Notes under the pieces: generated by a model
What the model was told of the DNA's origin: nothing
The model's input: the letters and a program-made list of their open reading frames with translations, nothing else
Database searches by the model: none
Assembly (NCBI RefSeq): GCF_000178835.2
Contig: NC_015275.1
Location: 2,563,001 to 2,627,000, forward strand
Length of the DNA: 64,000 nt
Source: Cellulosilyticum lentocellum DSM 5427
GTDB taxonomy: Bacteria; Bacillota; Clostridia; Lachnospirales; Cellulosilyticaceae
Reading direction: 5' to 3'
Shown here: in pieces, positions 12,000 to 48,673 of the stretch
Layout: the number at the start of each line of letters is the position of its first letter
Position numbering within the stretch: position 1 is the first letter of the stretch
Program-made: the position numbers and the translations under genes

Positions 12000-12356
12000 G
12001 TTGTTAACCAAGTCTATAAGCCGGGTTCTGTATCAAACAGTCATCTATCTACGCCTATAGTTACCTATAAGCTCTAGCGACCTACCCAAAGACTAGCGAG
12101 CAGCTATTAACGTCTTTCTATACGGTCTTGCTCCAGGTGGGGTTTACATGGCTCCCTTAGTCACCTAAGGGACGGTGAGCTCTTACCTCGCCTTTCCACC
12201 CTTTCCTATCAAGTGATAGGTGGTTTATTTCTGTTGCACTTTCCTTAGAGTCGCCTCCACTGGGTATTACCCAGCACCTTGCTCTGTGGAGCCCGGACGT
12301 TCCTCAAGCACTACCTTTCGGCCATGTGCGTGCGACTGTCTGACTTACTTAACAAC
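12000..12356 (-). ncRNA. rnpB: RNase P RNA
   Basis: Catalytic RNA of RNase P, which matures tRNA 5' ends. On the minus strand the 5' universal core reads GAGGAACGTCCGGGCTCC, one base away from the usual GAGGAAAGTCCGGGC. The 3' partner reads CAGAACCCGGCTTATAGACT. The ends 12342-12356 and 12000-12014 pair to give a 15-bp P1 helix with one mismatch, which fixes both ends to within a few bases. Length is about 357 nt. Preceded by a near-consensus promoter and followed by a terminator. Confidence 0.96.
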
Positions 12357-27466: not shown

Positions 27467-27680
27467 ATAAAAAACCTTCCATCCCTTAAGCAAGGGACGA
27501 AAGGTTATCTTCCGCGGTTCCACCCTTATTGAATGCTTACGCATTCCTCTTTCAAAGTTATCACTCCAAAGCGCCCTTCATAAAAACAGAAACAATTGGC
27601 TTCCACTCTCCCAATCTCGCTAAAGCTCTTATTTTTACTACTCCTCTTTTTCATTGTAATAATTGGTATCTACTTTATGT
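27467..27680 (-). promoter_or_regulatory. Glycine T-box riboswitch upstream of glyS
   Basis: The leader senses uncharged tRNA-Gly. The T-box core AGGGTGGAACCGCGG lies at 27512-27526 (minus strand), just before a terminator stem (27471-27507) with a T run, giving the terminator/antiterminator choice. Stem I contains the AG-bulge-like GAGAGTGGAAGCC, and a GGC glycine triplet at 27573-27575 is the likely specifier. The exact specifier loop was not folded by computer. Confidence 0.92.
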
Positions 27681-29341: not shown

Positions 29342-29422
29342 GCCGCTGTGGCGAAATGGCAGACGCACCTGACTCAAAATCAGGCGTAGAAATACATGCC
29401 GGTTCGAGTCCGGCCAGCGGTA
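29342..29422 (+). tRNA. tRNA-Leu (anticodon CAA), rebuilt copy at left element end
   Basis: Acceptor stem GCCGCTG pairs with CAGCGGT (one G-U at the end), anticodon arm CCTGA-CTCAAAA-TCAGG gives CAA for UUG codons, a long variable arm follows as expected for Leu, and the T arm GCCGG-TTCGAGT-CCGGC is perfect. Discriminator A; CCA not encoded. All but the first 3 nt belong to an 80-bp repeat also found at 43027, so the element supplied the 3' part when it integrated. No terminator is seen between it and the integrase gene. Confidence 0.95.
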
Positions 29423-29424
29423 TT
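29345..29424 (+). repeat. Attachment-site direct repeat, left (att)
   Basis: 80 bp identical to 43027-43106; covers the tRNA from position 4 to two bases past its end. Confidence 0.95.
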
Positions 29425-29534
29425 AATAATGTAGTATAATCAAGGCTTTGAGTTATTTAAATGACACCCTTTTTACACACATGACTATTTGATGTAAATC
29501 TAATGAGTCAAGCGTAGTAGAAAGGGGTTTTTTT

Positions 29535-30464
29535 ATGCCTAAAATTGAAATGAGGAAACACGAAATAACCACATTTGAAGAACTATTTTTACACTTTATC
29601 AAACATTGTAAAATCAAAAATGTATCTCCAAAAACTATTATTTATTACGAAACCAGCTATAACTCCATCTGTAAATTTAACCCTAACATCCAGTTAGATG
29701 AAATCGACTCTCTATTAATACAAGATTATATACTTTATTTAAAACAAACTAACAATCTTAATAGTGTTAATACGAGACTAAAAGGACTACGAACAATGTT
29801 AAACTATGGGTATTCTATTAATGCCCTACCCAAAATTAAAGTCCAGTTAATACGTGTTGATAAAGAGGTCAAAGAAACCTATTCAACAGAACAGATTTTA
29901 ACTCTAATTAAAAAGCCTAATGTAAAAAAGTGTAGCTTTGCCGAATATAGAAACTGGATGATAGTACATTATTTAGTCTCTACTGGTAATAGACTATCTA
30001 CATTAACCAACATCAAAATAGGCGATTTAGACATAGACAATAAACTTGTGACATTGAGACATACAAAAAATAGGCATCAACAAATTATTCCTTTGTCATC
30101 CATGTTGTGTAAGCACCTTGTCGAATACCTTACTTATCGTGAAGGAACAAGTGAAGATTATCTTTTTCCTACAGTAGAAAATAAACAACTCACTAAAGAC
30201 ACCCTTATAACTGCAATAAAAAACTACAATCGGTCAAGAGGAGTAAATATAACATCTATTCATGCTTTTAGAAGATATTTTGCTAAACAATGTGTATTGA
30301 ATGGAATAGACACCTTCACCTTACAAAAATTAGGCGGATGGAAAGATTTGACCGTTGTTAAAAATTATATAGAAATTTATGCTACTGATATTAAAGATTA
30401 TGACATGATAAATCCTTTAGATACTATTTATTCAGAAAAAATCAAGAATAAGACAAAGAGATAG
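29535..30464 (+). CDS. Tyrosine recombinase (integrase) of the tRNA-Leu element
   Basis: 309 residues: SAM-like N-terminal DNA-binding domain (about 10-95) and a catalytic domain with the first Arg in TGNRLSTL (near residue 154), a Lys-containing beta-hairpin (RHTKNRHQQI), HxxR as HAFRRYF (near 236), Trp in LGGWKD and the nucleophilic Tyr in VVKNYIEIY (near 275). ATG with AAAGGGG 8 bp upstream. It begins 112 bp past the tRNA; a TATAAT at about 29436 may be its own promoter, but read-through from the tRNA is also possible. Confidence 0.94.
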   Translation: MPKIEMRKHEITTFEELFLHFIKHCKIKNVSPKTIIYYETSYNSICKFNPNIQLDEIDSLLIQDYILYLKQTNNLNSVNTRLKGLRTMLNYGYSINALPKIKVQLIRVDKEVKETYSTEQILTLIKKPNVKKCSFAEYRNWMIVHYLVSTGNRLSTLTNIKIGDLDIDNKLVTLRHTKNRHQQIIPLSSMLCKHLVEYLTYREGTSEDYLFPTVENKQLTKDTLITAIKNYNRSRGVNITSIHAFRRYFAKQCVLNGIDTFTLQKLGGWKDLTVVKNYIEIYATDIKDYDMINPLDTIYSEKIKNKTKR

Positions 30465-30495
30465 TAAACTGCTATAAATAATTATTTCATAATAA

Positions 30496-30525
30496 AAAAG
30501 ACTTAGAAATTAATCTAAGTCTTTT
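30496..30525. terminator. Bidirectional terminator between integrase and apeA operon
   Basis: AAAAGACTTAGA pairs perfectly with TCTAAGTCTTTT around a 6-nt loop, between convergent genes. Confidence 0.85.
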
Positions 30526-30547
30526 ATTTATATACTATCACCTTTAC

Positions 30548-30592
30548 TCATACGCCTACTCTTGTTGCTATGTTCCTTGCTGGACGAGCCAT
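30548..30592 (-). CDS. 14-aa micro-ORF behind apeA (or recombinase start remnant)
   Basis: ATG at 30592 with a strong AAAGGAGGGTGAC ribosome site, coding for MARPARNIATRVGV, then stop. It lies 54 bp downstream of apeA on the same strand and before the shared terminator. The sequence resembles the first residues of many large serine recombinases (basic MAR start followed by a VGVY strand), so it may be a decayed start of such a gene and not a working peptide. Confidence 0.35.
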   Translation of the reverse strand: MARPARNIATRVGV

Positions 30593-31288
30593 GATGTCAC
30601 CCTCCTTTTATATATATGTAAGTTATTACAAGTATCAATATCCATCTTATTCTATTGATGTACTTACCTTACAAGCAATAAATTTGTTCGTAATTCCTAA
30701 TTCACCCATTGCAATATGGATCTCGCTATCCTTTAAGATATTTTCACTAATATATTCATCATTGAAACTCAATTCACGCATAATAAGTATCCGAAGTACA
30801 TATCTCATTAATACTGTACTATAATACAGATCAGTATCAGATAAAATATTCTCCTTTAAAGATTCATTAAAGTGTGTATAGTAATTTCGACTAGTCACGA
30901 TTCTATAACTTAAGGTTTTAATCTTACTATTTGAAACGTTTAATATACCTGAAATTTCTTTAAACAAAGTGGTAATGCGTTGTTGACAACTTGGTTCATT
31001 AATTATTGGTGTACTTAGTACCTTTCTTAACCATTCTTGGTTATTTGCATCTTCAATTGATTCTAATATTTCGCTAATCCTTTTTTCATGTTCCTCAGGA
31101 GGTATCAATGTACATTTTCTACATCTTCTTGAGTACGATTCTAATGCTTGAACCATTCTTAAAAAACCTGAAACTATACTTGTAGGTTCATTATGTGCCT
31201 CAACAAAATAATTAACTACAGGTGAAATAATTTTTATTTTATCATTCCAAACATTCATACATTCATTAAAGTTATAGATAAACCATTT

Positions 31289-32480
31289 TAAATACTGTTA
31301 TATGTTTGTATGATTTCTGTTATTTTTCATATCCTAAGTAAAAAAGGATTAGGAGATGACATTTATGAGCAGAACAACTTCCGTAACAGCTGAACTTCAT
31401 GGATACTCGTTAGAAGAACTAAAAAATTAAGAAGATCTTATTCTACAGAGATAGGTAGGAATGTTCTTACGACAGTTGTTATGCTTATAGAAGGCAATTC
31501 AGTTAAACAAATTGCAGATTTTCTTGCAGTACGTTTAATTACTGTTTATACCTATATAAATCGTTGGAATGAGCTTGGTATTTCTTCTTTAGAAGACTAT
31601 AGAGGTAGAACCCCTTCTAATTGCAAAATGACAGCTGAAATGGAACATGATCTTTTAGAAGTGGTTCAGCATAATATCCCTAATGATTTTGAGTTTCTAG
31701 GCAATGTTTGGACTGCCAAGCTTTTATCAGATTATCTTAATCAAAACTACGGGATAAGGCTATGCCCACAATGTATTAGAGATACACTTCATAAAAACAA
31801 CTATAGCTTCAAACGAGCTCAAAAAAGACCAAGTAAAGGTGTAAAATCTGAGCAAGAATCGTTTAAAAAAATGATAGAAACTACGAGTACTGTAGAAAAC
31901 GATTCTGATAGTGTTTTGTATGTTATGGACGAAACTGCCCTAAGAACAGAATCTGATAACAGGAGAACTTGGAGTCCAGTTGGGGTGTCCCCTATCTTAG
32001 AAAGCAATGGTTCTCATCAAGGGGTTAATATTATTGGTGCAACAGAAATAACCAAAAACTTTGATACAATAGCCGATATATATGATGCAGCACATACTAT
32101 CAAAGGTAAAGAAATAAAAGAATTTTTAAGTGAACTATTAGAACGTAATCTTGGAAAGAAGGTGTATGTTGTTTTAGATAATGCTAAAACACATAATAAT
32201 CATGAGATTCAAGAGTTCTGGAGTCAAAATACTAATAGGTTAGTACTTATTAATACCCCCGTTTATTCACCACAACTTAATCCACAAGAAAACATTTGGA
32301 ACTTGCTTAAGAATAAAGTGTATACAGTAGGTGCTAAAGAGAGTACTGATGCACTCTTTGAAGAAGTTAATCATCTATATAATCAATTCAATGATGATAA
32401 AGGGCTAATTAAAAACATCGTTAATCCCAGAAATTACTACTTCAAGTCCAGAATATAAGTAGGTATTTTAGTCCTACTTA
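31289..32480 (+). mobile_element. IS630-type insertion within apeA
   Basis: About 1.16-1.19 kb with one frameshifted transposase gene. IS630 elements duplicate TA. Two pairs of TA give an uninterrupted host frame when joined: 31293/32456 or 31289/32479. Terminal inverted repeats are weak: both ends share an ATTTCTG block about 20 bp inside. Short palindromes lie near each end (31331-31354 and 32456-32480). Exact ends remain open between these two solutions. Confidence 0.8.
31364..32458 (+). CDS. IS630-family transposase with -1 frameshift
   Basis: ATG 31364 has an AGGAGAT ribosome site and gives a 21-residue frame that stops at TAA 31427. The main frame continues in -1 through a run of six As (near 31420) and reads KLRRSYSTE, then a helix-turn-helix (IEGNSVKQIADFL) and the DDE catalytic domain: D in VMDETALR, D in VLDNAKTHNN, E in NPQENIWNLL. 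Total about 364 residues. IS630 relatives often use A6 -1 slippage, so this can be programmed and not a mutation. The stop codon TAA is formed with the target TA if the inner junction is right. Confidence 0.85.
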
Positions 32481-33404
32481 TTTCCTGAAATATTACAACA
32501 TTATTTAGTTTTATAAATGGTTTATCTATATCTTTTATATCATTAAAATATATAAAAAACCAATTTTTCAACTTGATATTTGAATTAATATTTGTGTTAT
32601 AAAACACATCAAACTTTTGATTATCCCCATCTTTTGCACTAATGGAATCTATTTGTATTTCCGTTCCTAAACATAATGTTACAAAAGTCTTAAAATTACA
32701 AACTGCATCCATAGCTTGCTTCCATGATGAGGTTTCCTTAAACTCAAATTTCACACCTGCCTTATGAACAGCACTTAACTCTTTAAATTTATCACAATGG
32801 ATGTTAAAGTTATAATCAAACTTTATATAATACTCACCCATATCAGCTTCACACGAAGATGGCATTGAATAGTTCATATTAAAATTATTATTTTGTGGAT
32901 CTTTAGCTATTGAAAAAATTCCATGCGCTAACCATTCTTCGAGACCGATAAAGTGAATTGTTATTGAGTTTAAAGAAATATCTTCTATACTACTAAATTC
33001 ATTTCCTATTATTACTATTGAAGGACTATACTCGAATAGACACATTCCTGGTATAGATAACTGTTGTCTAGGTTTAGAGCATGATAATAATGAGATTGAT
33101 TTTCCATTAAATAAATATCCACAAATTGATAAATATTCATTTGCCTCTAAATCTCTCAAGCCTTTAAAATACCCAATTGTTCGTAATTTAATTTTTCCAT
33201 CACTAAATTCTAATATGCCATTTATATTATTATCTTTGTTACTCGGTAAATACCAATGCCCCATCCATCCATTAATATCAGATAATTGCACTATTCATCA
33301 CCTCTCACTAGTACTTATTAAAATATCTCTGCATATTTTTCATTTTAGACATTTTGTATCTCTTGTTTGGGCACGTGGTTTGTAGTATAGGTTTACATTA
33401 TAGT

Positions 33405-34022
33405 TTAATTAGTAGGGTGGGGAGCAAATATAACTTCACAAAGCTTGCAATTTTGTACACTTCTATAAGCCATACTTAACTCTTTATTTTCTTCTTTTAT
33501 TAAATCCACCCTTTCTTTAATACATATCTTAATAATCTCTTCTACTACTTCCAAGCATTTATTTATATCTTGGTCAAAAATATAAGACGAACTCGTCGGC
33601 AAATCAACCTCAACAAATTCTCTACCAACTTGATTCATCTTGTCAAAAATTTTCTTTGCCTTTTTAGGCTGAATACCAGCAATATATCCTTTTGTCTCCT
33701 TCCTTTTATCACGTCCTTGTTCATTCATTCTTACCCAAAAAAGAATCTTATCTTCATCATCAATCTTCCGCTCTGAAAAATTTAATAAAACCAGACCTTC
33801 TATTCCCCATGTAACCAGTATATCTGGTGAAAGTTCATCTTTTCTTACTTCAATTCCTATCCCTAATTCAGGATATTCACTTCTTTGTAATTCTCTTAAA
33901 ACATCTAAAACTATCTGCGTCAACTCGTCTTTAGTATTATTATGTCTCAAGTCACTAACTCTCTCATACATATAATCAATAAATTCTTTTGCAGTTTCTA
34001 TACCTAAACTCATTTTAAACAC
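33405..34022 (-). CDS. Hypothetical protein (205 aa) between apeA and abiH
   Basis: Soluble, charged protein with no signal peptide or membrane segment. Helical N-terminus (about 1-60), then a mixed region with SPDILVTWGIEGLVLLNFS (about 68-86), a Lys/Arg-rich segment (KILFWVRMNEQGRDKRKE) and a C-terminal helical stretch ending in a CKLCE motif. No catalytic motif recognised. Same strand as apeA and abiH, 113 and 99 bp from them, with ordinary codon use for the element. Could be a partner or an independent gene. Confidence 0.65.
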   Translation of the reverse strand: MFKMSLGIETAKEFIDYMYERVSDLRHNNTKDELTQIVLDVLRELQRSEYPELGIGIEVRKDELSPDILVTWGIEGLVLLNFSERKIDDEDKILFWVRMNEQGRDKRKETKGYIAGIQPKKAKKIFDKMNQVGREFVEVDLPTSSSYIFDQDINKCLEVVEEIIKICIKERVDLIKEENKELSMAYRSVQNCKLCEVIFAPHPTN

Positions 34023-34121
34023 TCCTTCTAAAAATAAAGTTTTTTTCTTCCTAATTCGTTTTATAAACTAAAATAAATTTATTTCTACCAATCCTTCACA
34101 CTACTATCACCAGTCTTCAAG

Positions 34122-35366
34122 TTACTCTATAGGTATCATATCTTGTTGCTTTTTAAATATAATAGTTTTATTAGGTCCACTTACTCGTTTAATTAACTCA
34201 TCTTGGCCTATTACTTTCACTAAGTTTGCTATTTGTTGAGCATAGACTTGCTTATTCAGATAGAATATTGTTGTTATTACATTTTCATTCAATATTAGTT
34301 CTTTTAATATATCTTTATCTGTAACATCAAGCGAATGCCCAAATATATAAAGATTATGACGTAAACATAGTTTTCTTGTCATTTCCTTATCTGCTTTAGG
34401 TTGTATCGATATGATTTCATTATATTTCTTCTCGTCATCCTCTTGCATTTCTTTAATCCACATCTTATATTTACAGCCTGTTTCCTTGTGAATACGTTGA
34501 AAATACTTTTTAAATTGAATATAATCAACATCTATATTTTTTCTACTATCATCAAGATATTCATCTATTCCTAAAACCATATTATTATCTTGGATGTTAA
34601 AACTAAATTTATCTTTATCGCCCACTTTTCCATGAATAAAGTCATATTCTATACTGTTAATGTTAGTAGCATATAATAACCTAAATGTATCTGTATAATT
34701 AAAACTTACCACCTTATCAATGGATAACTCTGCAATATCTGTGGTTCTTTCTTCAATGGACTTAGAATCCATACAATAAACTAAATATATTTCTAAACAT
34801 TTTATAAGCCGGAGTAAGTCACCTTGTAGATATTTAATAATATTGTTATAGTATTCTTGCTCGTTTAAGTTATTAACATCTATCTTTATTCGCTTTCCTT
34901 CTAATGATATATTGCTATATAGGTTAGCATTCTCGATTATACGAATTAGCTTCTTTTCTAACTCATATTTCTTTAGATCATGATGGTTTAACTCTTTTTT
35001 TCCTCTTATCCTCTTCATATAATCTAAGCTTTTAATTACCTCTAATATTTCTCCTTCAAAGTCAACCCATCTGTCTCCATCATCTGCTACTTTATCCAAA
35101 AAATACTCTACCCAAATATTATTACTAACTAGCTCTTGCATTCTTTGTAAATCGTAACGACTCTCTGATGTTGTATTCTTTTCTGCAAACCATCTTCTTA
35201 TTAATGGATTAAGATTGGGATAACTTTCAGCCATAGCCATATCAACTATTTGCATTACACTATCTTTTTTTATATATATAACTTTTATAAAGTCCAAAAA
35301 ATCTGTATATTTAGTAGGTAACTTATGTGCTAGATCAAATCCATTTCCTATCAATAATATATTCAA
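34122..35366 (-). CDS. abiH: AbiH family abortive-infection protein
   Basis: 414 residues starting with NILLIGNGFDLAHKLPTKYTDFL, the defining N-terminal motif of AbiH proteins, which resembles a nucleotide-binding glycine loop. Also typical are FNYTDTFRLLY (near residue 223), IHGKV and the C-terminal NLYIFGHSLDVTDKDIL block. AbiH was first described as a lactococcal phage-exclusion gene; the mechanism is not well known. Intact and full-length. Neighbour of apeA and the 205-aa gene in the defence island. Confidence 0.9.
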   Translation of the reverse strand: MNILLIGNGFDLAHKLPTKYTDFLDFIKVIYIKKDSVMQIVDMAMAESYPNLNPLIRRWFAEKNTTSESRYDLQRMQELVSNNIWVEYFLDKVADDGDRWVDFEGEILEVIKSLDYMKRIRGKKELNHHDLKKYELEKKLIRIIENANLYSNISLEGKRIKIDVNNLNEQEYYNNIIKYLQGDLLRLIKCLEIYLVYCMDSKSIEERTTDIAELSIDKVVSFNYTDTFRLLYATNINSIEYDFIHGKVGDKDKFSFNIQDNNMVLGIDEYLDDSRKNIDVDYIQFKKYFQRIHKETGCKYKMWIKEMQEDDEKKYNEIISIQPKADKEMTRKLCLRHNLYIFGHSLDVTDKDILKELILNENVITTIFYLNKQVYAQQIANLVKVIGQDELIKRVSGPNKTIIFKKQQDMIPIE

Positions 35367-35979
35367 AATATCACCTTCTACATTTAATTATTTAGCTAAT
35401 ATCTCTCTTTCCAATCCACCAAACTACTATCACCACCTACAAATCACATCTACATTATCCTCATAAAATCTCAACCTTGAATAGTCCTAAATGCCCTATG
35501 TAAATCCTTTCAAAATTAAAGTAGTTCATATTTAAACTATTATATCAATTTATGTATGAACTTTTTGTCAAAATCAGTCATGATAATATATTATCCCAAT
35601 AAAAAAAGAACTTAACTTTATTTGCTAAGTCCTATCTTTTAGTACAATATTCTCATTTGAATATAAACAAATAATCCTGATCTCATTGAAAAAGTGTTTT
35701 TTTGCAATGACACGCACATCTTTAAAGGTGTGCGTGTGTGTTGCCGCAGCGTAGCGTAAGGCTTACTAATACGTAATGAATAGTCTTTTAAAGATAAACA
35801 TAGATACTATTTTTCGCCTAACTTTATACCCCTCATATATTATCTGCTACTACTTAGAACGTCCATTATATAAAATATAAACGTTAATATTGTTATTTAG
35901 TGTAAATTTAAAAAGGGGACAAATTTTAAGGGTATTCTATAATAAATAGACTTCCTATATTTTTTGTCCAGTTATTCTA
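35367..35979. other. Non-coding region with palindromes
   Basis: About 610 bp without a gene. It has a terminator (35601-35630), a 26-bp near-perfect palindrome (CACGCACATCTTT with AAAGGTGTGCGTG, 35711-35736), a smaller one GTAAGGCTTAC (35756-35766) and an adjoining GC-richer stretch. The rest is AT-rich with nothing recognised. Confidence 0.7.
35601..35630 (-). terminator. Terminator downstream of the helicase-like gene
   Basis: Minus strand: ACTTAGC pairs with GTTAAGT, followed by a run of seven Ts. 350 bp past the helicase stop. Confidence 0.55.
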
Positions 35980-37577
35980 TCATTCTGTTAAACCATTAAT
36001 TTCTGCTTCACATTCTACGATAGTATAAATTGTAGTTTTTTTCCCTTTTATCATTTTCCTATTTTGTACTATCATATAAGGAATACTATTTTGTTGTAAA
36101 TAAGTATTTAATGTACTTACACCACTAATTAATTGACCTTTTTTATCCTTTAAACCAATGATTTCTGCTATATCTTTTTTGCCTTTTGCGCCAATAAATG
36201 GTTTATCTACAATGCAACTAAGCTTATTTGAAATTTCCTGTTCTAATGTAGATGCTTTAATATCAATCAATGAATATTCATGTAAGTGCAGAATTGCCTG
36301 TGCTTCATTAATGTAGCCACTTATCCAATCTGTAGAAACAACTAAACCATGCTCCATTTCTGATACAACTTCGACATTATGTTGATACATTTGTAAATTT
36401 TTTAACTGTATATTCACATATCGCTCATAAAGTACGTTTAAATGCAACTCGCCATTGTAAAAGTAAAATCCATTTACAAGCTTGTTTATGCGCCTATAAC
36501 TATTATATTTTTTTTGATATTCCACCAAATTGTTTAGCTCGTTTCTTTTACCATTTATCAAACCTTGTACTATACTTCTGTTCCAGTTTCTAATATAAAC
36601 ATTTACACTTTTTTCACCATTTATTAAGCGCTTACGGCCTAAACATTGTATTGCAGTAGTTAAATCCCAAATATCTACTACAATATGCTTTAGTGTATCA
36701 TCTTTTATATCAATACCATTATCTAAGCATGAGGTTGTAATCGATAATATTTTTAGGCATTTATTGTCTTTAAAAGCATCTTCTGTATTTTCAAAGGATT
36801 TTCTGTTATATTCAGATGCAGTTATGGAGGCAATATCTTTGTAACGTTCATAAAGCACTTTTGCTTTTGACTTGTTGCTACTAAAATAAAGAATTTTGTT
36901 TTCTGTATTAATGTCTTCATGAAGCAGTAGATATTCAACCATTTCTGTACCATCTACATTGAAATAATGTACATTCATGTAGTCGTAGTCAGGTTCAATA
37001 TAATAGTTCTTAGTATCAACTTCACAAATTTCAAACATTTTAAACACTTCTTTTCCAGTTGCAGACATAAATATTCTTGTTGCATTGTGTTGTGCTTCAA
37101 TCCACCTAAAACTAACATCAGTAGTACAGTTCCATGCATCTGTTAAAAAGTAATGACATTCGTCACATATGATAAAATCATAGTGTTGTACAGTTTTACC
37201 TTGACATATATTATCTTCTAAAGTCTGATAACACATATTATCGATAGTATTACCATTAACAATATTACTACTAATTATTTCATTATCATCAATTTCTATA
37301 TTCAGATATTTTCTATATTGCAATCTTAGTTTTCTCCTATTGGATAATATAAGAATTTTTTTATTAGTAATACTAGGAATTAATACCTTATATATGAAGT
37401 AGGACTTTCCACTCCCCATCGGTGCTGAAAGTAATATTTGTTCACCTGCTTTCCAGTTCTGCCAATGAAATTCAAACAACTCAGTTACATATGTTCCTCT
37501 TGGTGCATCAAAGTAATTTTCAATCTTAGTTTCTTTTAATACTTCAATGTGATGCTTTTCATATTTTTATTTGCCAT
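35980..37577 (-). pseudogene. DExH helicase-like ATPase with early frameshift
   Basis: Superfamily 2 helicase-like protein. Walker A APMGSGKS, Walker B/DExH box DECH, motif III SATG and motif VI QCLGRKR are all intact. The open frame begins at TTG 37479, but frame and homology-like sequence continue upstream for 33 codons without a start. ATG 37577, with AAAGGA 8 bp ahead, gives MANKN and then a stop after 13 codons. One extra A in the five-A run at 37564-37568 would join both into one 532-residue frame. So either a one-base deletion, a sequencing error, phase variation, or use of the internal TTG. The C-terminal part (helical, about 170 residues) is not recognised. Confidence 0.75.
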
Positions 37578-38280
37578 TAAATCAATCCTTTCATTCATAT
37601 TATTTTAAATTAAAAATAGTAGTAATATCTTCACCCCACTTTGAAACTGTTTGTGGTTACTTTACTTGATACTTTATCTACTATTGTACTATTTTTATGT
37701 AATATTATCAAAATTTAGATTGATTTAATATTTGATAATTAAACCCTTTAAAATATTAATACTTATACCCAAATCATAACTACTAATAATATCAAAATCA
37801 TTCAATTTCATAAATATTTTTTTGCACCGCTCGACATTCTTAAATAAATATAAGGTATTTCGTGTATGTATAGTTTGAAGCGGTAAACAGTAAGTTCTTC
37901 GACAAACAATAATTATATAAATCAATTTGAGCAGTAGCTTTCAAACCAAAACATTCTAGTATGTATGTAGAATAACTATAAAGATATGTATGTGTCTAAA
38001 TATACGTTTAGTGGAAATATACGCCTCTCTATGCATTGATTTTACGTACCAAAAACACCATATTTTTTATCTAGCTATGTACTTATGGACATTTATACCT
38101 TTCAAGATAATTAAAGCAACGGAGATTAGTTTTATAAATAATTCATAACATTAGCTCGGTATAAGATGGTTTTACTTTCACTAAAAATAATATCAGTAAA
38201 CCTATAAAGCTATGTTTTTCAATAGATTAACTGACTTACTAGGTAGATCTATATTATACTCTTAAATAAAAAAACAAGGC
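37578..38280. other. Gene-poor stretch upstream of the helicase-like gene
   Basis: 700 bp, very AT-rich. A 66-codon minus-strand frame at 37725-37925 has no ribosome site and no recognisable content, so I do not call it. Probably holds the promoter of the helicase gene (near 37640-37700). Nothing else seen. Confidence 0.5.
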
Positions 38281-38979
38281 TTATTTATTGCCTTGTTTTT
38301 CTACTATCTCCCTTTTATATTTGTAATAAGTATTTCTTGCTATGCCTACTAACTTCATAACCGCTATATCGTTTAATGTTCCTTTAAAGTCCTTTGAATA
38401 CTTTATAATTTGCTCTTTGGCTTGAATTGACTTCTTAGTAACCAACTTAGCTCCTTGCTCCTGCCCAATTTGTTTACCGTTCCTTCTTGCTGTTTCAATC
38501 CCTTGACTTGTTCTTTCCCTTAAATCATCAACCTCTTTTTGTGCTTGTCCAAAAGCTATTATGATTTGCTCTTTAGCCAATAACATTAATACCTGTTCTG
38601 TTGTTTTTAAATACATATTAGCTATTTCACTATCTGTTGTAGGAAGGTTTATATCCAGCTTACTTCTGTATACATCTGTATTAATGTATCCCTCTTTAAG
38701 AAATACTAAGTTAATATTCCTATTGAATAGTTCCATGTAAAGATTCACACCATCTTCTGCATTTCTACTCATACGACTCACACTGTCAAATACGATTGTA
38801 TCACCTGCTTTAACTGCTTTTAGTAGTTTAGTAAATTCTTTTCTACCCTCTACCTTTGTACCTGTGTATGCTTCTTTTACAATAATTGCATCTTCATAGG
38901 CTAATTGAATGTTTCTCACTTGTCTTTCTATGTTCTGTTGCTTTGTACTTATTCTGCAATATCCGTAGGTTTTGCTCAT
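38281..38979 (-). CDS. Serine recombinase (resolvase/invertase)
   Basis: 232-residue small serine recombinase. The N-terminal catalytic domain starts TYGYCRISTKQQNIERQ with the nucleophile Ser near residue 9, and has the SRMSRN motif with its conserved Arg residues near residue 66. The C-terminus has a helix-turn-helix (LNDIAVMKLVGIARNTYYKYKRE). Start ATG 38979 has AGGAG 8 bp upstream; the GTG at 38988 abuts it. A 17-bp inverted repeat upstream could be its res site. Confidence 0.9.
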   Translation of the reverse strand: MSKTYGYCRISTKQQNIERQVRNIQLAYEDAIIVKEAYTGTKVEGRKEFTKLLKAVKAGDTIVFDSVSRMSRNAEDGVNLYMELFNRNINLVFLKEGYINTDVYRSKLDINLPTTDSEIANMYLKTTEQVLMLLAKEQIIIAFGQAQKEVDDLRERTSQGIETARRNGKQIGQEQGAKLVTKKSIQAKEQIIKYSKDFKGTLNDIAVMKLVGIARNTYYKYKREIVEKQGNK

Positions 38980-38996
38980 GTATATCACTCCTGTAT

Positions 38997-39103
38997 AGTA
39001 TTAAATCTAACGTTTATCAGTTTCTATACACCATATAATATGCCTATTCGTCATATATGTCAATACTTTTAATACTTTTTTATTATACGTTAAATTTAAT
39101 ACT
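38997..39103. repeat. Inverted repeats upstream of the resolvase, likely res site
   Basis: AGTATTAAATCTAACGT (38997-39013) is the inverse of ACGTTAAATTTAATACT (39087-39103), 16 of 17 positions, 73 bp apart and starting 17 bp from the resolvase ATG. Confidence 0.6.
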
Positions 39104-39162
39104 TAAGAATTGATACTGTCTCCTAGTAAAACAAAATAAATTAATTTCTGTTCTCTTACATA

Positions 39163-39312
39163 TCACAACATATTCCAATATTTATAGATACAGTTCTTAC
39201 ACTTTATAGAATGCATAGTATGATTAGTACTATTTAGTGGCTTAGGTTGGATTTGTTTAATAAGTTGCTTTATTTGATCTTGTAGTTGCTGTTCTGATTT
39301 ATTTTGTTGCAT
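39163..39312 (-). CDS. Small protein with CxxC motif (49 aa)
   Basis: ATG 39312 has a near-perfect AGGAGGTGG ribosome site 8 bp upstream. Residues 1-25 are Gln/Lys-rich and likely helical, followed by HSIKCKNCIYKYW with a CxxC pair. It follows the Mrr-like gene by 47 bp on the same strand. No family recognised; the CxxC and the His could bind a metal. Confidence 0.5.
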   Translation of the reverse strand: MQQNKSEQQLQDQIKQLIKQIQPKPLNSTNHTMHSIKCKNCIYKYWNML

Positions 39313-39359
39313 AAAGAAAGACCACCTCCTAGTTGGGAGTATGGTCAAAACAATATTTT

Positions 39360-40106
39360 CTATTCTAAAAACATATATAAATATGCATCACTTTCTTCAA
39401 ATTTATATTCTGGGATAGAAATATTTGAACTATCAAGTATTGTTTCAAATTCTCTTAATGCACACTTAACTTCACATAAAAGGTACTCTAGATACTTATC
39501 AATTGCACTAAACTCCTTAAATCTGCAATAGTTATTATCTTCATCATTTATTAAATCAGACTTCTTTACCATCCAACAGGTACTTCTTAATTCACTATAC
39601 GTATTACATGCATTCAGATACCTTTCCTTATCTTCTTCTCTTAACCGTTCAAAAGGGAAATCTAGTGGATCTAAATATACAGATAATGGTGCAGATATTT
39701 TTTTTATTTTTTTCAGCTGAGTAGTTAACCACTTGTCACTTAAGGTATTTATAAATTCTTCCCATGTCAATAGTATTACATTAGAGCATTTTGCAGCATC
39801 AATTGCACCTGATTGAAAACCATTCTTTGATATTAGCATACCTAATGTAGCCCCTGAATCATACACTACTGTTCTAAATGCATGTACTTTTTCTTTTGGG
39901 ACAGGGGTATTCCAATATTTGCACTCACATATAATTTTTTTAGCAATTTCATTTGGAGCTTCTACGTAAACATCAACTTCAACTTTTCCTCTAACAGTTT
40001 CAATGTTATAAGGAGTCATTGCAACATAGCCTGCCTCATTAAAAAACTTTGATACACAGTCCTGTAAATCCTTCCAAGATTCAGGAATTATCCCCGTATA
40101 TTTCAT
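39360..40106 (-). CDS. Mrr-type restriction endonuclease-like protein
   Basis: 248 residues. The N-terminal 130 form an Mrr_cat PD-(D/E)xK domain: Asp45 in KVEVDVYVEA, then Glu61-x-Lys63 in ICECKYW, followed by VHAFRTVVYDSGATLGMLISKNGFQSGA, characteristic of the family. The C-terminal half is helical and not recognised. Such enzymes cut modified DNA (type IV) or act in other defence complexes. Likely active from the intact motif. The gmrSD-like gene lies upstream, behind a terminator. Confidence 0.86.
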   Translation of the reverse strand: MKYTGIIPESWKDLQDCVSKFFNEAGYVAMTPYNIETVRGKVEVDVYVEAPNEIAKKIICECKYWNTPVPKEKVHAFRTVVYDSGATLGMLISKNGFQSGAIDAAKCSNVILLTWEEFINTLSDKWLTTQLKKIKKISAPLSVYLDPLDFPFERLREEDKERYLNACNTYSELRSTCWMVKKSDLINDEDNNYCRFKEFSAIDKYLEYLLCEVKCALREFETILDSSNISIPEYKFEESDAYLYMFLE

Positions 40107-40462
40107 TTTTCTTTCCTCCTGAATATTTTCATTACTATCATATTCCCAATTATTTATGTATATTTATCTTGTGTCTAATTGTAACGCCTACCACAAGGAT
40201 TATATCCTTTGGTTGTAGTCACTTCTACACTATTAGCATCATATCATTATCTAAATATTACTACTTAATCACTTTTTCTCTGATAAAAAAGACTCGCCAT
40301 GTTTCGACAAGTCCTTAATATTATTCTAGTCAAATTAGTAAGATGATTATCTTTTAGTCTCGCTATTTTATCATCAACTTTACTATTTCTTATAGCAATT
40401 ATAGTGGGTTAAACATTACATCTAAGTAATCAATAACCTTTTTCATAATTAATTATTCTAAT
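40107..40462. other. Intergenic region between Mrr-like and GmrSD-like genes
   Basis: 355 bp, AT-rich. Contains the terminator of the upstream gene (40285-40313) and presumably the promoter of the Mrr-like gene. No further gene seen. Confidence 0.5.
40285..40313 (-). terminator. Terminator of the GmrSD-like gene
   Basis: Minus strand: GACTTGTC pairs with GGCGAGTC (two G-U) around a 7-nt loop, followed by six Ts. Confidence 0.7.
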
Positions 40463-42496
40463 TTAATTGTTTAGTATGTTATCTCTTTTAGTGGTATATG
40501 CCTCTATAAATACTTCTTTTCTTTCATCAAACATTTGCTGATAATTATTCACGTTAGAATACTCCAAAAACTTATCTTCCAAAATAAACTCATATTTTAC
40601 GATCTGATCTTTAAGCCATTGACTATCTATTAATATCAATTTCTTATTACTCTTCGATATATTTTCGTCTTTAGGAAGTAACCCTAAATTTAAAAGGTTA
40701 TCTTGTATTACCTCTTTTTTCGGAATAGAAGATTGATTGAATAAAGTCTGTGGAATAATATGGTCAACTTCTATATCATAGTTTGTATCTGGTCCCTGTA
40801 TACTCTTTAAACAATAAAAATGATAAAGAAGTGGTTTCATAGTACCAATTGAAACATCCGTTGATTCAATAGAATTTTCGGCAAAAATTTGGTCTTCTAA
40901 AATTGTTTTCCATTTCCATCCAGGTATTGAAGCAAAATCCTCATCTTCACTTCCAACATTAATAATATTATTTGCTATCTTAGAGTCACTTGATCCCCTC
41001 CATTGCCTATTAATATATTCATAAATTAATCTGTCCCATAAAATAAAACAATTTTTTTGAAAACGCTTAGCTTTAGAATCGCCTAAAGGCTTTCCTTTTC
41101 TACACCAATCAAAATATGCTACTATAATAAAGTTTAATGCAATTGCGTCACTAGTAAGTTCCATCATCGAAATATTCCATGACTTAAAATACTTAAAATA
41201 GTCAAATGATGAAATTAGTTTAAACATATTTTTAAGATCATAGATTAATCCCTCTATATCAGTTCCCCAATTCAAACTTTTAATTTTACTTAGTTTCTCA
41301 ATATCTTCTTTCTTAACTCCTTTAGCATAAATGCCTGAAAGTATTTTAAATCCACAAGTAAGTTCTTTTTCGAAATCAGCTTTCGTATCAGAAAACCTTT
41401 TTAAAATAAAATTGTCACCTATCCTCCTTACTAGAGTAGCCGGAAAATCCCATCTAACTACGTTAGTTTGCATAGTTCCTATTCTCTTATACAATTCTTT
41501 AACAGTTTCTACGGCTAATTGAGATGGCATTTCTATAACTATGTTCCAATGTGGCTTAGCTGATAAAATCTCAACTGCTGTGAGTTTTTCTCCCTCAGAA
41601 TTTATGATATTAAATATTTTTTGTGAATCAGAAGGTGATAAATTTTTCACCTCAATCATCCCGATCTTACTGTTAGTTAATAATGTGTCGATTTTCTCAA
41701 CAATAAGGATTCTTTCTTTTATTGCCTCCCATTTATCTTTTATTAATACCTTTACTTTAGGTTCATTTCGGATATCACACCTAATGTTGATAAATTGATA
41801 AAAAGATTTTTCATCCTCATAGCTTATACATTCATCATCGCAATATCTCCTATATTCATCTATAAATGTTTTAACTCTACGTGATGATAGTTTTACTCCC
41901 CCTTCTTCACTTTCTATATACGGCAACCTGTTTACATATTTTGTAAAATCGAAAGGCTTTGTAAATCCCGTATTTTTCTTTTGCTTATTATGGATTATCT
42001 TAATAATCTCTAATAATAGATCAAGCCCATATGCATTAGAAGTAATTTGTTCATCATCGCATTCTTCAGTTGCTTCACTATTATCTTCACTATCATCTTC
42101 ATTTTTAGTGCTTTGCATCATTTCAGTTTCTTCATCAATATCAGCTTCTATATATTCTCTAATTTTCTTTAAGAATTTATCTTCAATATCACTAGGTTGA
42201 TCTGAATTTTTAAAGCCAATAAACTTTTTAGCCCAAATATATATATTTTCAGGATCATCATACATCATAGTTAATGCATTTTTACGTTGCCTCCCATCTA
42301 AAAGCCATCTAACTAACTTACCTTTACTTTCATCTACGCTTAAAATACATACACCTATTGGATATTCCTTAAATAAGCTGATACACAACTGAAAATTCTT
42401 TTTTTCATCCCATGTTTGCTTTCTCTGGAACCTTGGCAATTTAACATTTCTATCTGTAATAAATGTCTTAATTGATTCTGGTCTTATTTCGTACAT
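40463..42496 (-). CDS. DUF262/DUF1524 (GmrSD-like) defence protein
   Basis: 677 residues with two domains of the GmrSD type IV restriction system fused in one chain. N-terminal DUF262 (ParB/sulfiredoxin-like) keeps LPRFQRKQTW near residue 20 and the nucleotide-binding DGRQR at 67-71. The C-terminal DUF1524 HNH nuclease keeps EVDHIIPQ (Asp578-His579) and a trailing NLGLLP...SNK. A highly acidic stretch (about 125-150) sits between. GmrSD cuts glucosylated hydroxymethylcytosine DNA using NTP; related BrxU and SspE share this plan. Intact. Which modification is recognised cannot be told. Confidence 0.88.
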   Translation of the reverse strand: MYEIRPESIKTFITDRNVKLPRFQRKQTWDEKKNFQLCISLFKEYPIGVCILSVDESKGKLVRWLLDGRQRKNALTMMYDDPENIYIWAKKFIGFKNSDQPSDIEDKFLKKIREYIEADIDEETEMMQSTKNEDDSEDNSEATEECDDEQITSNAYGLDLLLEIIKIIHNKQKKNTGFTKPFDFTKYVNRLPYIESEEGGVKLSSRRVKTFIDEYRRYCDDECISYEDEKSFYQFINIRCDIRNEPKVKVLIKDKWEAIKERILIVEKIDTLLTNSKIGMIEVKNLSPSDSQKIFNIINSEGEKLTAVEILSAKPHWNIVIEMPSQLAVETVKELYKRIGTMQTNVVRWDFPATLVRRIGDNFILKRFSDTKADFEKELTCGFKILSGIYAKGVKKEDIEKLSKIKSLNWGTDIEGLIYDLKNMFKLISSFDYFKYFKSWNISMMELTSDAIALNFIIVAYFDWCRKGKPLGDSKAKRFQKNCFILWDRLIYEYINRQWRGSSDSKIANNIINVGSEDEDFASIPGWKWKTILEDQIFAENSIESTDVSIGTMKPLLYHFYCLKSIQGPDTNYDIEVDHIIPQTLFNQSSIPKKEVIQDNLLNLGLLPKDENISKSNKKLILIDSQWLKDQIVKYEFILEDKFLEYSNVNNYQQMFDERKEVFIEAYTTKRDNILNN

Positions 42497-43026
42497 TATA
42501 GTCCTCCTACATATCGATTATACTTTTATATAATATTACCAATATTTCAAAATCAATTCAATAACAATACTACTCTATTCAGAAATAACTATATACTTTT
42601 ATGTTTAAAAATATAAAAACATCCAATCCTATTGCAAAGATCAGATGCTCCAACATAAATTATCATCCTATCAAGTACCCCATGCAATTACCATATCACC
42701 TCATCTCACATGGCACTTCAACATTACTTCTTACCTTTCCCCCTACAGCCTTTAATAACTTCTCACTTCCCCACCAGTAAACACCTTGTCATGCAATACT
42801 GTATTCCCAAGTTTATTTTCAATATCTCTCATAATCTCCTTACACACACCAATTATATCATTGACTTAGGGGTATACTTACTTCTACCTATTGGATTGTA
42901 TCGTTTAAATATGGCTTCAAATTCGCTTGAAAATAATACATAAATACATTACAATATATATCATACTTTCACATAGTCATGTGTGTTAAAATCAAATAAT
43001 CCAAGTGTAGTTCTTGATAGTCAAAG
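42497..43026. other. Right end of the element, no intact gene
   Basis: About 530 bp. On the minus strand an AAGGAGATT site precedes a 26-codon frame at 42828 (MRDIENKLGN...) that continues in another frame after a stop, so it looks like a decayed gene. A terminator hairpin lies at 42620-42647 (minus). Nothing else recognised. Confidence 0.5.
42620..42647 (-). terminator. Terminator-like hairpin at right end of element
   Basis: Minus strand: CATCTGATC pairs with GATTGGATG, including two G-U pairs, followed by TTTTTAT. Confidence 0.45.
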
Positions 43027-43106
43027 GCTGTGGCGAAATGGCAGACGCACCTGACTCAAAATCAGGCGTAGAAATACATGCCGGTTCGAGTCCGGCCAGC
43101 GGTATT
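43027..43106 (+). repeat. Attachment-site direct repeat, right (tRNA-Leu remnant)
   Basis: 80 bp identical to 29345-29424. The first three tRNA bases (GCC) are replaced by AAG, which breaks three acceptor pairs and removes the tRNA promoter, so this copy is not expected to give a working tRNA. Confidence 0.93.
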
Positions 43107-43121
43107 GTTAATTACGATACC

Positions 43122-43162
43122 AAATAAAACACACCTGATTTTGAGTCAGGTGTGTTTTATTT
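43122..43162. terminator. Original tRNA-Leu terminator containing an inverted anticodon arm
   Basis: Perfect 17-bp stem with a 7-nt TTTTGAG loop. Positions 43134-43150 read CCTGATTTTGAGTCAGG, the exact reverse complement of the tRNA anticodon stem-loop. A/T tracts on both sides allow termination in either direction. Confidence 0.85.
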
Positions 43163-43509
43163 TACATGTAGTATAAGAATACTATTTTATACTTCATTAA
43201 TTTACTTTTGCCAAATAGTTTCCTCACTACAGTTTCAACGTGTCTTTGGACAAAATAAGAAAATTATTTGGCGTTAATATTCACCGTATACATAGAGGGC
43301 TAATAGTTTTACCCCCTCTACCCCTAAATAAACACTAACTACTATCATCACTAGTATGAATTCTTGTTGTTTAGCTTATTAATAAGTACAGATTATCTGT
43401 GGTGCATCAAAAACAGATAACCTAGATATCTACACATCCATGGTTACCCTTGAAGTCTATGATAAAGCTTTAATCTTCTCCTAAAATGCTCCTTGATTAA
43501 TAATCTAAA
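43163..43509. other. Gene-free stretch
   Basis: About 350 bp, AT-rich, with a weak hairpin near 43293-43321 (AGAGGG with CCCTCT). No gene or RNA recognised. Confidence 0.5.
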
Positions 43510-43668
43510 TTAATCGATCATTCCTGCAGAGGCATTGTATCCATCTTTAAATCCAGCTATAAAACTATTTGATGCATAAAAAATTGCATATCCAATCGCA
43601 AATACTATACATGTCAAACCCACAAAGTAAATAAATTTATTAATAAAATACTTGATTCTATCTTTCAT
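43510..43668 (-). CDS. Small membrane peptide (52 aa)
   Basis: ATG 43668 has AGGGGGG 6 bp upstream. Basic N-terminus (MKDRIKYFINK) followed by a single hydrophobic segment (about 12-36) and a polar tail ending GYNASAGMID. The single helix with basic start recalls small regulatory or toxin-like membrane peptides, but nothing else supports that. It lies between the tRNA terminator and the putative ncRNA. Not recognised. Confidence 0.55.
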   Translation of the reverse strand: MKDRIKYFINKFIYFVGLTCIVFAIGYAIFYASNSFIAGFKDGYNASAGMID

Positions 43669-43914
43669 ATAACCCCCCTATATTTACAAGAATATATCTT
43701 ATATAAATTATAAACTTTGTTTTTAAAATATTCAAATAAATTATTACTTTTAGGTCTTCTTAAAAAACTCAAGTGAAAACGTTGCCTGATTTTTATTCTT
43801 GTTAGTATAGTTAAATCTCCTGTATCTTACGAACTTATAAATAAATCTTTAACTTTTTATTAGGGAATTGTTTTTCTCCTAACATATATATAAGAGTAAA
43901 GGTAAATCAAATAA

Positions 43915-44333
43915 CTTCCCACGGCAAATCACCACAGCATTAACCTGAGGAACTGACCGGGTCGACCAAGTCTCAATCTATTGTTATAGGTACCTCTGGC
44001 TCTAAGGAAAAGGTTCACTTGTGCGCTGTACGGGAGGCGCCATCCTATAAGTTGTCAAAAAAGCTTTTACATCTTTTATATCTAAAGAAAGTCTTAAACC
44101 AGAGTCTTAAAGCCTTAGCTTCCTCATACATAAGGGTGCACCGGCTAAGACTATTAAGAGCTCCTCACTCCTTGGTTTAACTTTTATCTACTTACCTTGC
44201 AGCCATAAAGAAGTATTATGTGCTGAGGAGCCATATGACGCCCTTTCGGAGGCTTGGTAAGCATGGAAAAGTTATTCATAGGTGGCTGGATCAAAAAATG
44301 CAACCTTGCATCAATCGCAAGGTTGCATTTTTT
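43915..44333 (+). ncRNA. Putative structured non-coding RNA, family unknown
   Basis: About 400 nt with no protein frame but several complementary segments: TTATAGG (43984) with CCTATAA (44044), TTAAACCA (44094) with TGGTTTAA (44173), AGTCTTAAAGCC (44103) with GGCTAAGACT (44143), and GCTCCTCA (44160) with TGAGGAGC (44224). The last crosses the second and would be a pseudoknot. It ends in a strong terminator, and a TTGTTT/TATAAG promoter-like region lies near 43869-43895. GC content is well above the flanks. It is not RNase P, SRP, tmRNA or a T-box. The strand is inferred from promoter and terminator; the ends are approximate. Confidence 0.5.
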
Positions 44334-44334
44334 T
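44293..44334. terminator. Strong terminator between the putative ncRNA and the VOC gene
   Basis: AAAAAATGCAACCTTGC pairs perfectly with its complement across a 7-nt loop, with A and T runs on both sides; works for either strand. Confidence 0.85.
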
Positions 44335-44391
44335 GTATTATTTTATTATATAAAGATATGGACCTCATCTTACCTTATTTACTAAAGCCAG

Positions 44392-44772
44392 TTACTTGTC
44401 TTCTCTTAGTAGATAAGTATTGCCTTCTATATCCTTGAAAGAAAACATACTTCCATAAGGCATTTGCATTAATGGACCTACTTCAACACCTTTGCTTTTC
44501 ATTTTTTCATAAGCAGTAGCTATATCTGTCGTACTTAAAATAATGCTAGGATGGCTCACATTAGCATCTGCTTTTTGAGCTAACATCGCCTTCTTATCAT
44601 AAAGTACAAAAGTTGTCTCTGCCCCTATTCTAGGCGCTACCTCTATCCATTTAAGTTCTGGGCCCATTTGCTGTTCAAAAGTTACAACAAACTCTAATTG
44701 GTCACACCAAAATCGTTTAGCCTCTTCTTGATTATTCACATATATTGTTATTTTACCTATTTTATGAATCAT
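44392..44772 (-). CDS. VOC family (glyoxalase-like) protein
   Basis: 126 residues, one vicinal-oxygen-chelate domain made of two beta-alpha-beta3 units: HKIGKITIYVNNQEEAKRFW start, and PSIILSTTDIATAYEKMKSKGVEVGP in the second half, ending FKDIEGNTYLLRE. Conserved His and Glu positions suggest a metal site. These act in resistance, isomerase or dioxygenase roles, and the substrate is not predictable. Monocistronic and close to the flavoenzyme gene. Confidence 0.85.
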   Translation of the reverse strand: MIHKIGKITIYVNNQEEAKRFWCDQLEFVVTFEQQMGPELKWIEVAPRIGAETTFVLYDKKAMLAQKADANVSHPSIILSTTDIATAYEKMKSKGVEVGPLMQMPYGSMFSFKDIEGNTYLLREDK

Positions 44773-44862
44773 TAATTGACCTCCATGTTGTTTTATTCTA
44801 CTGTCTTAGTAGTGTAACTCAAAGCACCTTTTGTTGCAAAGGATACTTCCTTTCTACTGTGA

Positions 44863-46212: not shown

Positions 46213-46267
46213 GATAATCTCCTTTCCATTCTTCAGCCTATGAACAGTTTACCTGTAGGACTTTTAA

Positions 46268-48511: not shown

Positions 48512-48632
48512 ACCATGTTCTCCTAGCTGTCTATGTATAGTATCTGTAATATTATGTCATTTCATTATAGCATATCCGTTTATGAGCTGGCCATTTTTTC
48601 ATGATATGCTATTTTTTACCAATTTATTTTTA

Positions 48633-48673
48633 AAAAACAGGTGTTATTGTTTTTAGCAATAACACCTGTTTTT
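48633..48673 (-). terminator. Terminator after the RodA/PBP operon
   Basis: AAAAACAGGTGTTATTG pairs with its exact complement around a 7-nt loop; it touches the PBP stop codon, with a run of Ts on the minus strand. Confidence 0.85.

What the first reader, a model, noticed from the sequence alone, without database searches (positions are those of the whole stretch)
29342..43110. 13.7-kb integrated element in tRNA-Leu(CAA) that is mostly a defence island
Seen: 80-bp perfect direct repeats of the tRNA at both ends, an intact tyrosine integrase at the left, and in between genes recognisable as ApeA (HEPN RNase, split), AbiH, DExH helicase-like, serine resolvase, Mrr-like nuclease and GmrSD-like DUF262/DUF1524. 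Known: each of these families is a phage-defence or DNA-turnover family. Inference: a small mobile carrier of stacked defence modules, without structural or conjugation genes.
Basis: partly seen in the sequence, partly recalled or inferred. Interest (0 to 1): 0.75.

Follow-up and report, generated by a model that had tools for sequence, protein, structure and literature searches.

The report
Mobile defence island in tRNA-Leu gene
A 13.7-kb piece of acquired DNA sits in a leucine tRNA gene of this bacterium, with its own integrase and four kinds of anti-phage gene (one broken by an insertion sequence); ten relatives have the same site empty, so it is a defence island of mobile-element type, one case of a wider group of small integrase-driven elements with different cargo.

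Summary
Observation confirmed. The left tRNA-Leu(CAA) is intact, the right copy has a broken acceptor stem, and 80 bp are identical. Ten of 23 family relatives were fetched: each has one tRNA-Leu(CAA) in the stretch, 9 of 10 the same upstream gene and 10 of 10 the same downstream gene, without the element. Cargo: ApeA (cut by a six-copy IS630), AbiH, Mrr_cat and DUF262/GmrSD genes (about 39% of the DNA, my sum), an orphan ORF, an SF2 helicase and a serine resolvase; no structural or conjugation gene among the ten main ORFs. Helicase and resolvase look like mobile-element genes. A sister integrase (53-54%) in the same chromosome belongs to a 17.1-kb element with phage head genes in tRNA-Leu(CAG). 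Surveys found 13 bracketed elements including these two, 2.6-25.9 kb, seven in tRNA-Leu, with cargo from phage genes to a second defence island (R-M, PDC-M33, Tmn). Inverted short repeats inside both ends suggest attP arm sites. Excision, transfer and phage resistance are untested. New member of a known kind. Noticed nearby: an unnamed, covarying RNA repeat with 25 further long genomic matches.

The parts
29342..29422 (+). tRNA-Leu(CAA), intact copy; attL
   Evidence: ARAGORN; Rfam 58 bits; full acceptor stem, my reading
29345..29424 (+). 80-bp exact direct repeat, left copy
29470..29492 (+). left arm of the inverted repeat that flanks the att core
   Evidence: score reached in 0 of 400 simulated flank pairs
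29535..30464 (+). tyrosine integrase, 309 aa
   Evidence: PF00589 4.9e-28; R153, K178, H243, R246, Y278 among the invariant columns of six integrases; that these are the catalytic residues is recalled
30647..31258 (-). ApeA, C-terminal HEPN piece (R-NYYT-H visible)
   Evidence: PF18739 3.5e-27; PDC-S58 and Cas13-ApeA
31272..32531 (+). IS630-family insertion sequence (transposase 31481-32458) inside the ApeA gene
   Evidence: NF033545 2.5e-56; six full copies; boundaries by comparison with one other copy
32437..33291 (-). ApeA, N-terminal piece (ORF as called; its last bases lie in the IS)
   Evidence: PF18862 2.7e-37
33405..34022 (-). orphan ORF, 205 aa, function unknown
   Evidence: no family match; no plasmid or viral-contig hit
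34122..35366 (-). AbiH-family gene
   Evidence: PF14253 1.6e-41
35980..37479 (-). SF2 (DExH) helicase, TTG start as called, start uncertain; probably an element backbone gene
   Evidence: ResIII/DEAD; homologues near related integrases in L077 and L155
38281..38988 (-). serine resolvase/invertase, 235 aa
   Evidence: PF00239 3e-23; 50% identical to that of L104; relatives in 33 viral contigs
39360..40106 (-). Mrr_cat nuclease (type IV-like restriction)
   Evidence: PF04471 1.3e-13
40463..42496 (-). DUF262/GmrSD-like endonuclease (DGRQR and DHIIP visible in the translation)
   Evidence: PF03235 2.2e-15; PF07510 1.9e-4, below its cut-off; PADLOC HEC-05 3.7e-11
42969..42991 (+). right arm of the inverted repeat that flanks the att core
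43024..43106 (+). second tRNA-Leu copy with broken acceptor stem; attR (exact repeat 43027-43106)

Best explanation
It is an integrative element that entered the chromosomal tRNA-Leu(CAA) gene by site-specific recombination, catalysed by its own small tyrosine integrase. The circular form would carry a nearly full-length tRNA copy (attP core) between two inverted arm repeats; at the left junction a whole tRNA stands, so the host keeps its gene (seen in the sequence). Inside it has a small mobile-element backbone (integrase; SF2 helicase, perhaps for replication of the circle; serine resolvase: inferred) and a stack of unrelated defence genes that would restrict modified DNA (Mrr, GmrSD type) and abort infection (AbiH; ApeA before the IS hit it) (inferred from the families). 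Transfer between cells probably depends on a helper phage, a conjugative element or uptake, since no such genes were found (inferred).
For: Matched 80-bp ends and open integrase; empty site in the ten relatives fetched; inverted arm pair inside both ends, 0 of 400 simulations, with pairs above 60 shuffles in 5 of 11 other bracketed elements tested; lower G+C; a sister integrase in the same genome sits the same way in tRNA-Leu(CAG) (tree); of 17 surveyed loci with an intact tRNA just upstream of the integrase, 13 are tRNA-Leu; two further loci with related integrases carry other defence-type genes.
Against: No excisionase recognised (short ORFs were not scanned); no circle, excision or transfer data. 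ApeA is broken, and long non-coding stretches (35367-35979, 37480-38280) suggest some decay. No near-identical DNA in phage or plasmid records, so recent movement is not shown. In 6 of 12 bracketed elements no arm pair stands out from shuffles. The helicase also occurs without this integrase: 0 of 6 other genomes had it in the stretch fetched, some stretches being cut by contig ends.
Confidence: 0.85

Rival explanations
1. It is the remnant of a small prophage or phage satellite that lost its head genes and collected defence genes; the helicase is the relic of its replication module.
For: The sister integrase in the same genome belongs to a 17.1-kb element with scaffold, capsid, portal and terminase matches. 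A helicase homologue lies in L077, a viral contig with a related integrase and terminase-like ORFs (by eye). Resolvase relatives occur in 33 viral contigs.
Against: No structural or packaging gene among the main ORFs of the window element. Several small elements of the group (L097, L101, L116, L140) show no phage structural gene by eye; only a few of their proteins were scanned and none with PHROGs, so this is weak.
Confidence: 0.3
2. Immobile old island: the element is fixed, its integrase no longer works, and the defence genes persist only by selection.
For: IS630 in ApeA, non-coding gaps, no recognised excisionase.
Against: Integrase open with the invariant columns kept; both ends and arm repeats preserved, 80 bp exact; site empty in the relatives fetched. 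The IS copies are near-identical, so the hit in ApeA looks recent (inference).
Confidence: 0.2
3. Integrative mobilisable element with an unrecognised origin of transfer, moved by a co-resident conjugative element.
For: One element of the survey (L146, tRNA-Phe) has relaxase-like and coupling-protein-like ORFs by eye; a hairpin with a 12-bp stem at 35710-35737 could be such an origin.
Against: No relaxase among the ten main ORFs; the hairpin region has no plasmid match.
Confidence: 0.15

Closest known systems
dusA-associated integrase islands (PMC4482086; abstract and section list seen)
   Same: One integrase family serves prophages and genomic islands with one main target; very diverse cargo, the integrase being the only common feature
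   Different: Here the target is tRNA (mostly Leu) or the 3' end of a few protein genes, not dusA; the integrases were not compared
Tycheposons (passages of PMC10872708, and PMC11389934, which lists them among phage satellites)
   Same: tRNA at the border, tyrosine recombinase, variable cargo, 4-200 kb in the passage seen
   Different: Described there for Prochlorococcus and Methylophilaceae with metabolic cargo; recombinases not compared here
P4-like satellites and P2-like prophages with antiviral hotspots (PMC9122126; abstract and section list seen)
   Same: Integrated elements carrying exchangeable anti-phage systems
   Different: No capsid or packaging gene found here; helper control not testable
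Defence islands of the E. coli pan-genome (PMC10121019; search listing and start of abstract)
   Same: Defence genes clustered, integrases mentioned in the text by the term counts
   Different: Here the whole island lies between two att repeats and its empty site is seen in relatives

Membership tests
Integrase-driven genomic island in a tRNA gene | Matched direct repeats at both ends that include the tRNA 3' end | tested here: met
   80 bp exact
Integrase-driven genomic island in a tRNA gene | Open integrase next to one end | tested here: met
Integrase-driven genomic island in a tRNA gene | Empty site in relatives | tested here: met
   10 of 10 relatives fetched (of 23 in the family search) have one tRNA-Leu(CAA) and the downstream gene; 9 of 10 also the upstream gene, the tenth contig begins near the tRNA
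Integrase-driven genomic island in a tRNA gene | Excises as a circle | not testable with these tools
   needs reads or PCR
Defence island | Several unrelated known defence families together | tested here: met
   ApeA, AbiH, Mrr_cat, GmrSD
Defence island | Protects against phage | not testable with these tools
   plaque assays needed; ApeA is IS-broken
Phage satellite | Capsid or packaging genes (some satellites, such as PICMIs, lack capsid-remodelling genes: abstract start) | tested here: not met
   none among ten ORFs by Pfam and eight by PHROGs
Phage satellite | Induced and packaged by a helper phage | not testable with these tools
   experiment
ICE / IME | Relaxase or mating-pair genes | tested here: not met
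   none among ten ORFs
ICE / IME | oriT only | tested here: inconclusive
   hairpin 35710-35737, no plasmid match
Tycheposon | tRNA border plus tyrosine recombinase plus cargo | tested here: met
   definition as in the passages
Tycheposon | Recombinase of the tycheposon lineage | not tested
   no tycheposon sequence was compared

The most novel reading that the evidence does not exclude
The integrase defines an undescribed group of elements whose attP carries an essentially whole tRNA (mostly tRNA-Leu isoacceptors) between inverted arm sites, and whose interior is exchangeable: sister elements in one chromosome are a phage-head element and a defence island, so one recombination platform alternates between parasite and defender.
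Probability: 0.35. Interest if true: 0.65.

Novelty: new member of a known kind. Interest (0 to 1): 0.42.

Why it matters
It is a cleanly bounded defence island with an observed empty site, tied to a broad integrase group whose members carry R-M, PDC-M33 and Tmn genes (L104), HEC-01 genes (L155), phage head genes (L053) or a VapC-like toxin ORF by eye (L101). That makes the question of how defence islands without transfer genes move directly testable (one integrase, one short att site, a sister element in the same cell), and it points at unexplored cargo such as the orphan 205-aa gene between AbiH and ApeA.

Tried and rejected
Six-row integrase alignment in genome contigs had no conserved stretch; a three-row alignment worked. 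Helicase as a defence gene: rejected, PADLOC gives only a weak Cas3-like match (6e-4) and homologues sit in mobile elements. Helicase as a marker confined to this integrase group: rejected (0 of 6 other genomes). Resolvase as a special link between the window and L104: weakened, since 33 viral contigs carry relatives up to 65% identical. Orphan ORF: no family; of 392 genomes of the order only the own genome and one very weak hit (5e-4); of 398 of the phylum only the own genome (limit 1e-5); none in plasmids or viral contigs; single-sequence fold uninformative (mean pLDDT 37), so no fold search was made. Solved-structure searches of GmrSD, Mrr and the orphan gave nothing usable. Element DNA against phage and plasmid records: no match. 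The near-identical pairs L080/L081 and L086/L087 were left in the row count.
Full report
What is there. The window lies in a one-contig genome of 4,714,237 bases; the size is the one I recall for Cellulosilyticum lentocellum DSM 5427, which no call confirms. Two tRNA-Leu(CAA) copies lie at 29342-29422 and 43024-43104, exact over 80 bp. The left copy has a complete acceptor stem; in the right one the first bases differ (my reading), and its Rfam score is 44 against 58 bits. They are the only two matches of the 89-bp query in the genome at 1e-3. The DNA between them has G+C of 26-32% per kb, against 31-39% in the rest of the window.

Cargo. From left to right: integrase; ApeA in two pieces around an IS630; a 205-aa orphan; AbiH; an SF2 helicase; a serine resolvase; an Mrr_cat nuclease; a DUF262/GmrSD protein. 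The IS630 is present in six full copies shown as 100% identical, so ApeA was probably hit recently by a resident IS; its two pieces cover positions 6-255 and 262-446 of one PDC-S58 profile. Four of these eight loci (IS aside) are defence families, about 39% of the element's bases (my sum). No capsid, packaging, tail, relaxase or mating gene was found among the ten main ORFs (Pfam) or eight of them (PHROGs); the shorter ORFs (61-89 aa) were not scanned.

Empty site. The tRNA was searched in 24 genomes of the family, own included; 10 of the 23 relatives were fetched around their best match, the other 13 not. Each of the ten has exactly one tRNA gene of type Leu(CAA) in the stretch. In 9 of 10 the sigma-factor gene stands upstream as in the window, and in 10 of 10 the penicillin-binding-protein gene downstream; the tenth contig begins near the tRNA. 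In G004, same genus, about 120 bp separate the tRNA from that gene. G005, same genus, has about 7 kb of other genes there but no second tRNA. In the window a further 5.5 kb lies between the right tRNA and that gene, outside the repeats; its three proteins had no match in the ten stretches.

Ends. Just inside both ends lie 23-nt arms, 91% complementary and inverted (29470-29492, 42969-42991), 45 and 35 nt from the core; none of 400 simulated flank pairs reached the score. Of 12 bracketed elements tested (L115 was not), six (window, L053, L055, L097, L106, L146) had a pair that none of 60 shuffles reached; in the other six 4 to 46 of 60 did. This fits paired binding sites around the attP core, but what binds them is unknown; the core-binding domain starts at residue 13 of the integrase, which leaves little room for a separate arm-binding domain (inference).

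Relatives by integrase. Among 59 genomes, own included, the closest other match is in the own genome, 54%. It lies downstream of a tRNA-Leu(CAG) and is bracketed by a 119-bp, 98% repeat 17.1 kb apart. Ten of its proteins were scanned: scaffold, capsid, portal and terminase families matched, no tail family; of the terminase I see only a C-terminal open frame. The two integrases are sisters (100/99; tree of 57 rows). Further scans: 25 loci in genome contigs, 20 in viral contigs, 18 of 392 genomes of the order, own included, at 1e-40. Of 63 rows examined, 61 had an integrase match, one of them a duplicate contig; 17 of the remaining 60 have an intact tRNA just upstream, 13 of these tRNA-Leu, the others Ala, Pro, Gln and Phe. 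Many of the rest begin or end near a contig end, and nine viral ones match only weakly. Thirteen elements are bracketed by long repeats or paired tRNAs (window, L053, L055, L097, L101, L104, L106, L107, L110, L115, L116, L140, L146), about 2.6 to 25.9 kb. Seven of the 13 are in tRNA-Leu, one in tRNA-Pro, one in tRNA-Phe, and four (L104, L107, L110, L115) seem to use the 3' end of a protein gene (by eye; L107 a ribosomal protein L31-like end). L097 has an extra tRNA fragment upstream.

Cargo of relatives. L104/L152 is a 15.3-kb element with an integrase 39% identical, PDC-M33A/B/C, a C5 methyltransferase, an N4/N6 methyltransferase, an ICEA-family protein, Tmn and a resolvase 50% identical to the window's: a second defence island. 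L155 (record MT836340, human faecal sample; it also bears chromosome-like genes by eye) has integrase, helicase, HEC-01A/B and a resolvase; its ends were not found and its integrase branch is long. L053 is phage-like, L055 and L077 by eye. L097 has a weak VapE-like match below its cut-off, and L116 an ORF that resembles it (by eye); L101 has a VapC-like ORF by eye, without a PADLOC match; L146 has relaxase-like ORFs by eye. So the integrase travels with different cargo. The helicase is not tied to it: 7 of 392 genomes have it, own included, and none of the other six had the integrase in the stretch fetched.

Mechanism. Seen: matched ends, open integrase, whole tRNA at the left junction, empty sites, related elements. 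Inferred: integration by the integrase, helicase for replication of the circle, defence by the named families, transfer by a helper. Not shown: excision, transfer, resistance to phage.

Known and new. Defence islands, tRNA-integrated islands and integrase families shared by prophages and islands are known (PMC10121019, PMC9122126, PMC4482086; what I saw of each is under Closest known systems). In the held library, searches listed no paper whose title or shown abstract start concerns this integrase group or this element; several of these lists were capped (for example 25 of 37, 15 of 83, 10 of 12,572), and I read no further. I therefore file it as a new member of a known kind, with the exchangeable-cargo group as the bolder reading.

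Noticed in passing
window 43855-44294 (+); R1 model match 43910-44057: One copy of a dispersed, roughly 430-nt structured RNA repeat: 25 other long matches at 79-87% identity in the chromosome (26 of 106 first-look candidates scored); as DNA, 2 of 23 family relatives show only partial hits (G007, G015) and 21 none. No Rfam match. Fold z -2.8 and -3.4 on the two strands. On 13 copies the + strand fold has 21 of 102 pairs with compensatory changes, 49 such cells against 17.2 in shuffles, 0 of 500 (one further measure was reached by 36 of 500, and the structure came from the same alignment); the opposite strand 1 of 68 pairs. A model of its core matches 2 of 295 genomes, own and G007, with 10 candidates scored per genome. 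Function unknown.
   Followed up: partly
window 43131-43155: The terminator-like hairpin just after the right tRNA is a 92% reverse-complement copy (25 nt) of the tRNA-Leu(CAA) anticodon arm; the nine relatives printed have other hairpins there by eye.
   Followed up: partly
L053 8207 to L072 5463 (G000:C1 about 1346206-1363462): 17.1-kb element in tRNA-Leu(CAG) of the same chromosome with head and packaging matches but no tail match in ten proteins scanned; could be a capsid-bearing satellite or a decayed prophage.
   Followed up: partly
window 35710-35737: Hairpin with a 12-bp stem in a 613-bp non-coding gap; DNA fold z -2.6 for 35680-35790; no plasmid match. Possible origin.
   Followed up: partly
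window 43105-48672: 5.5 kb between the right tRNA and the penicillin-binding-protein gene; its three proteins had no match in the ten relative stretches: perhaps another insertion.
   Followed up: no
window 27490-27663 (-) and 12001-12351 (-): T-box leader and RNase P RNA, ordinary.
   Followed up: no
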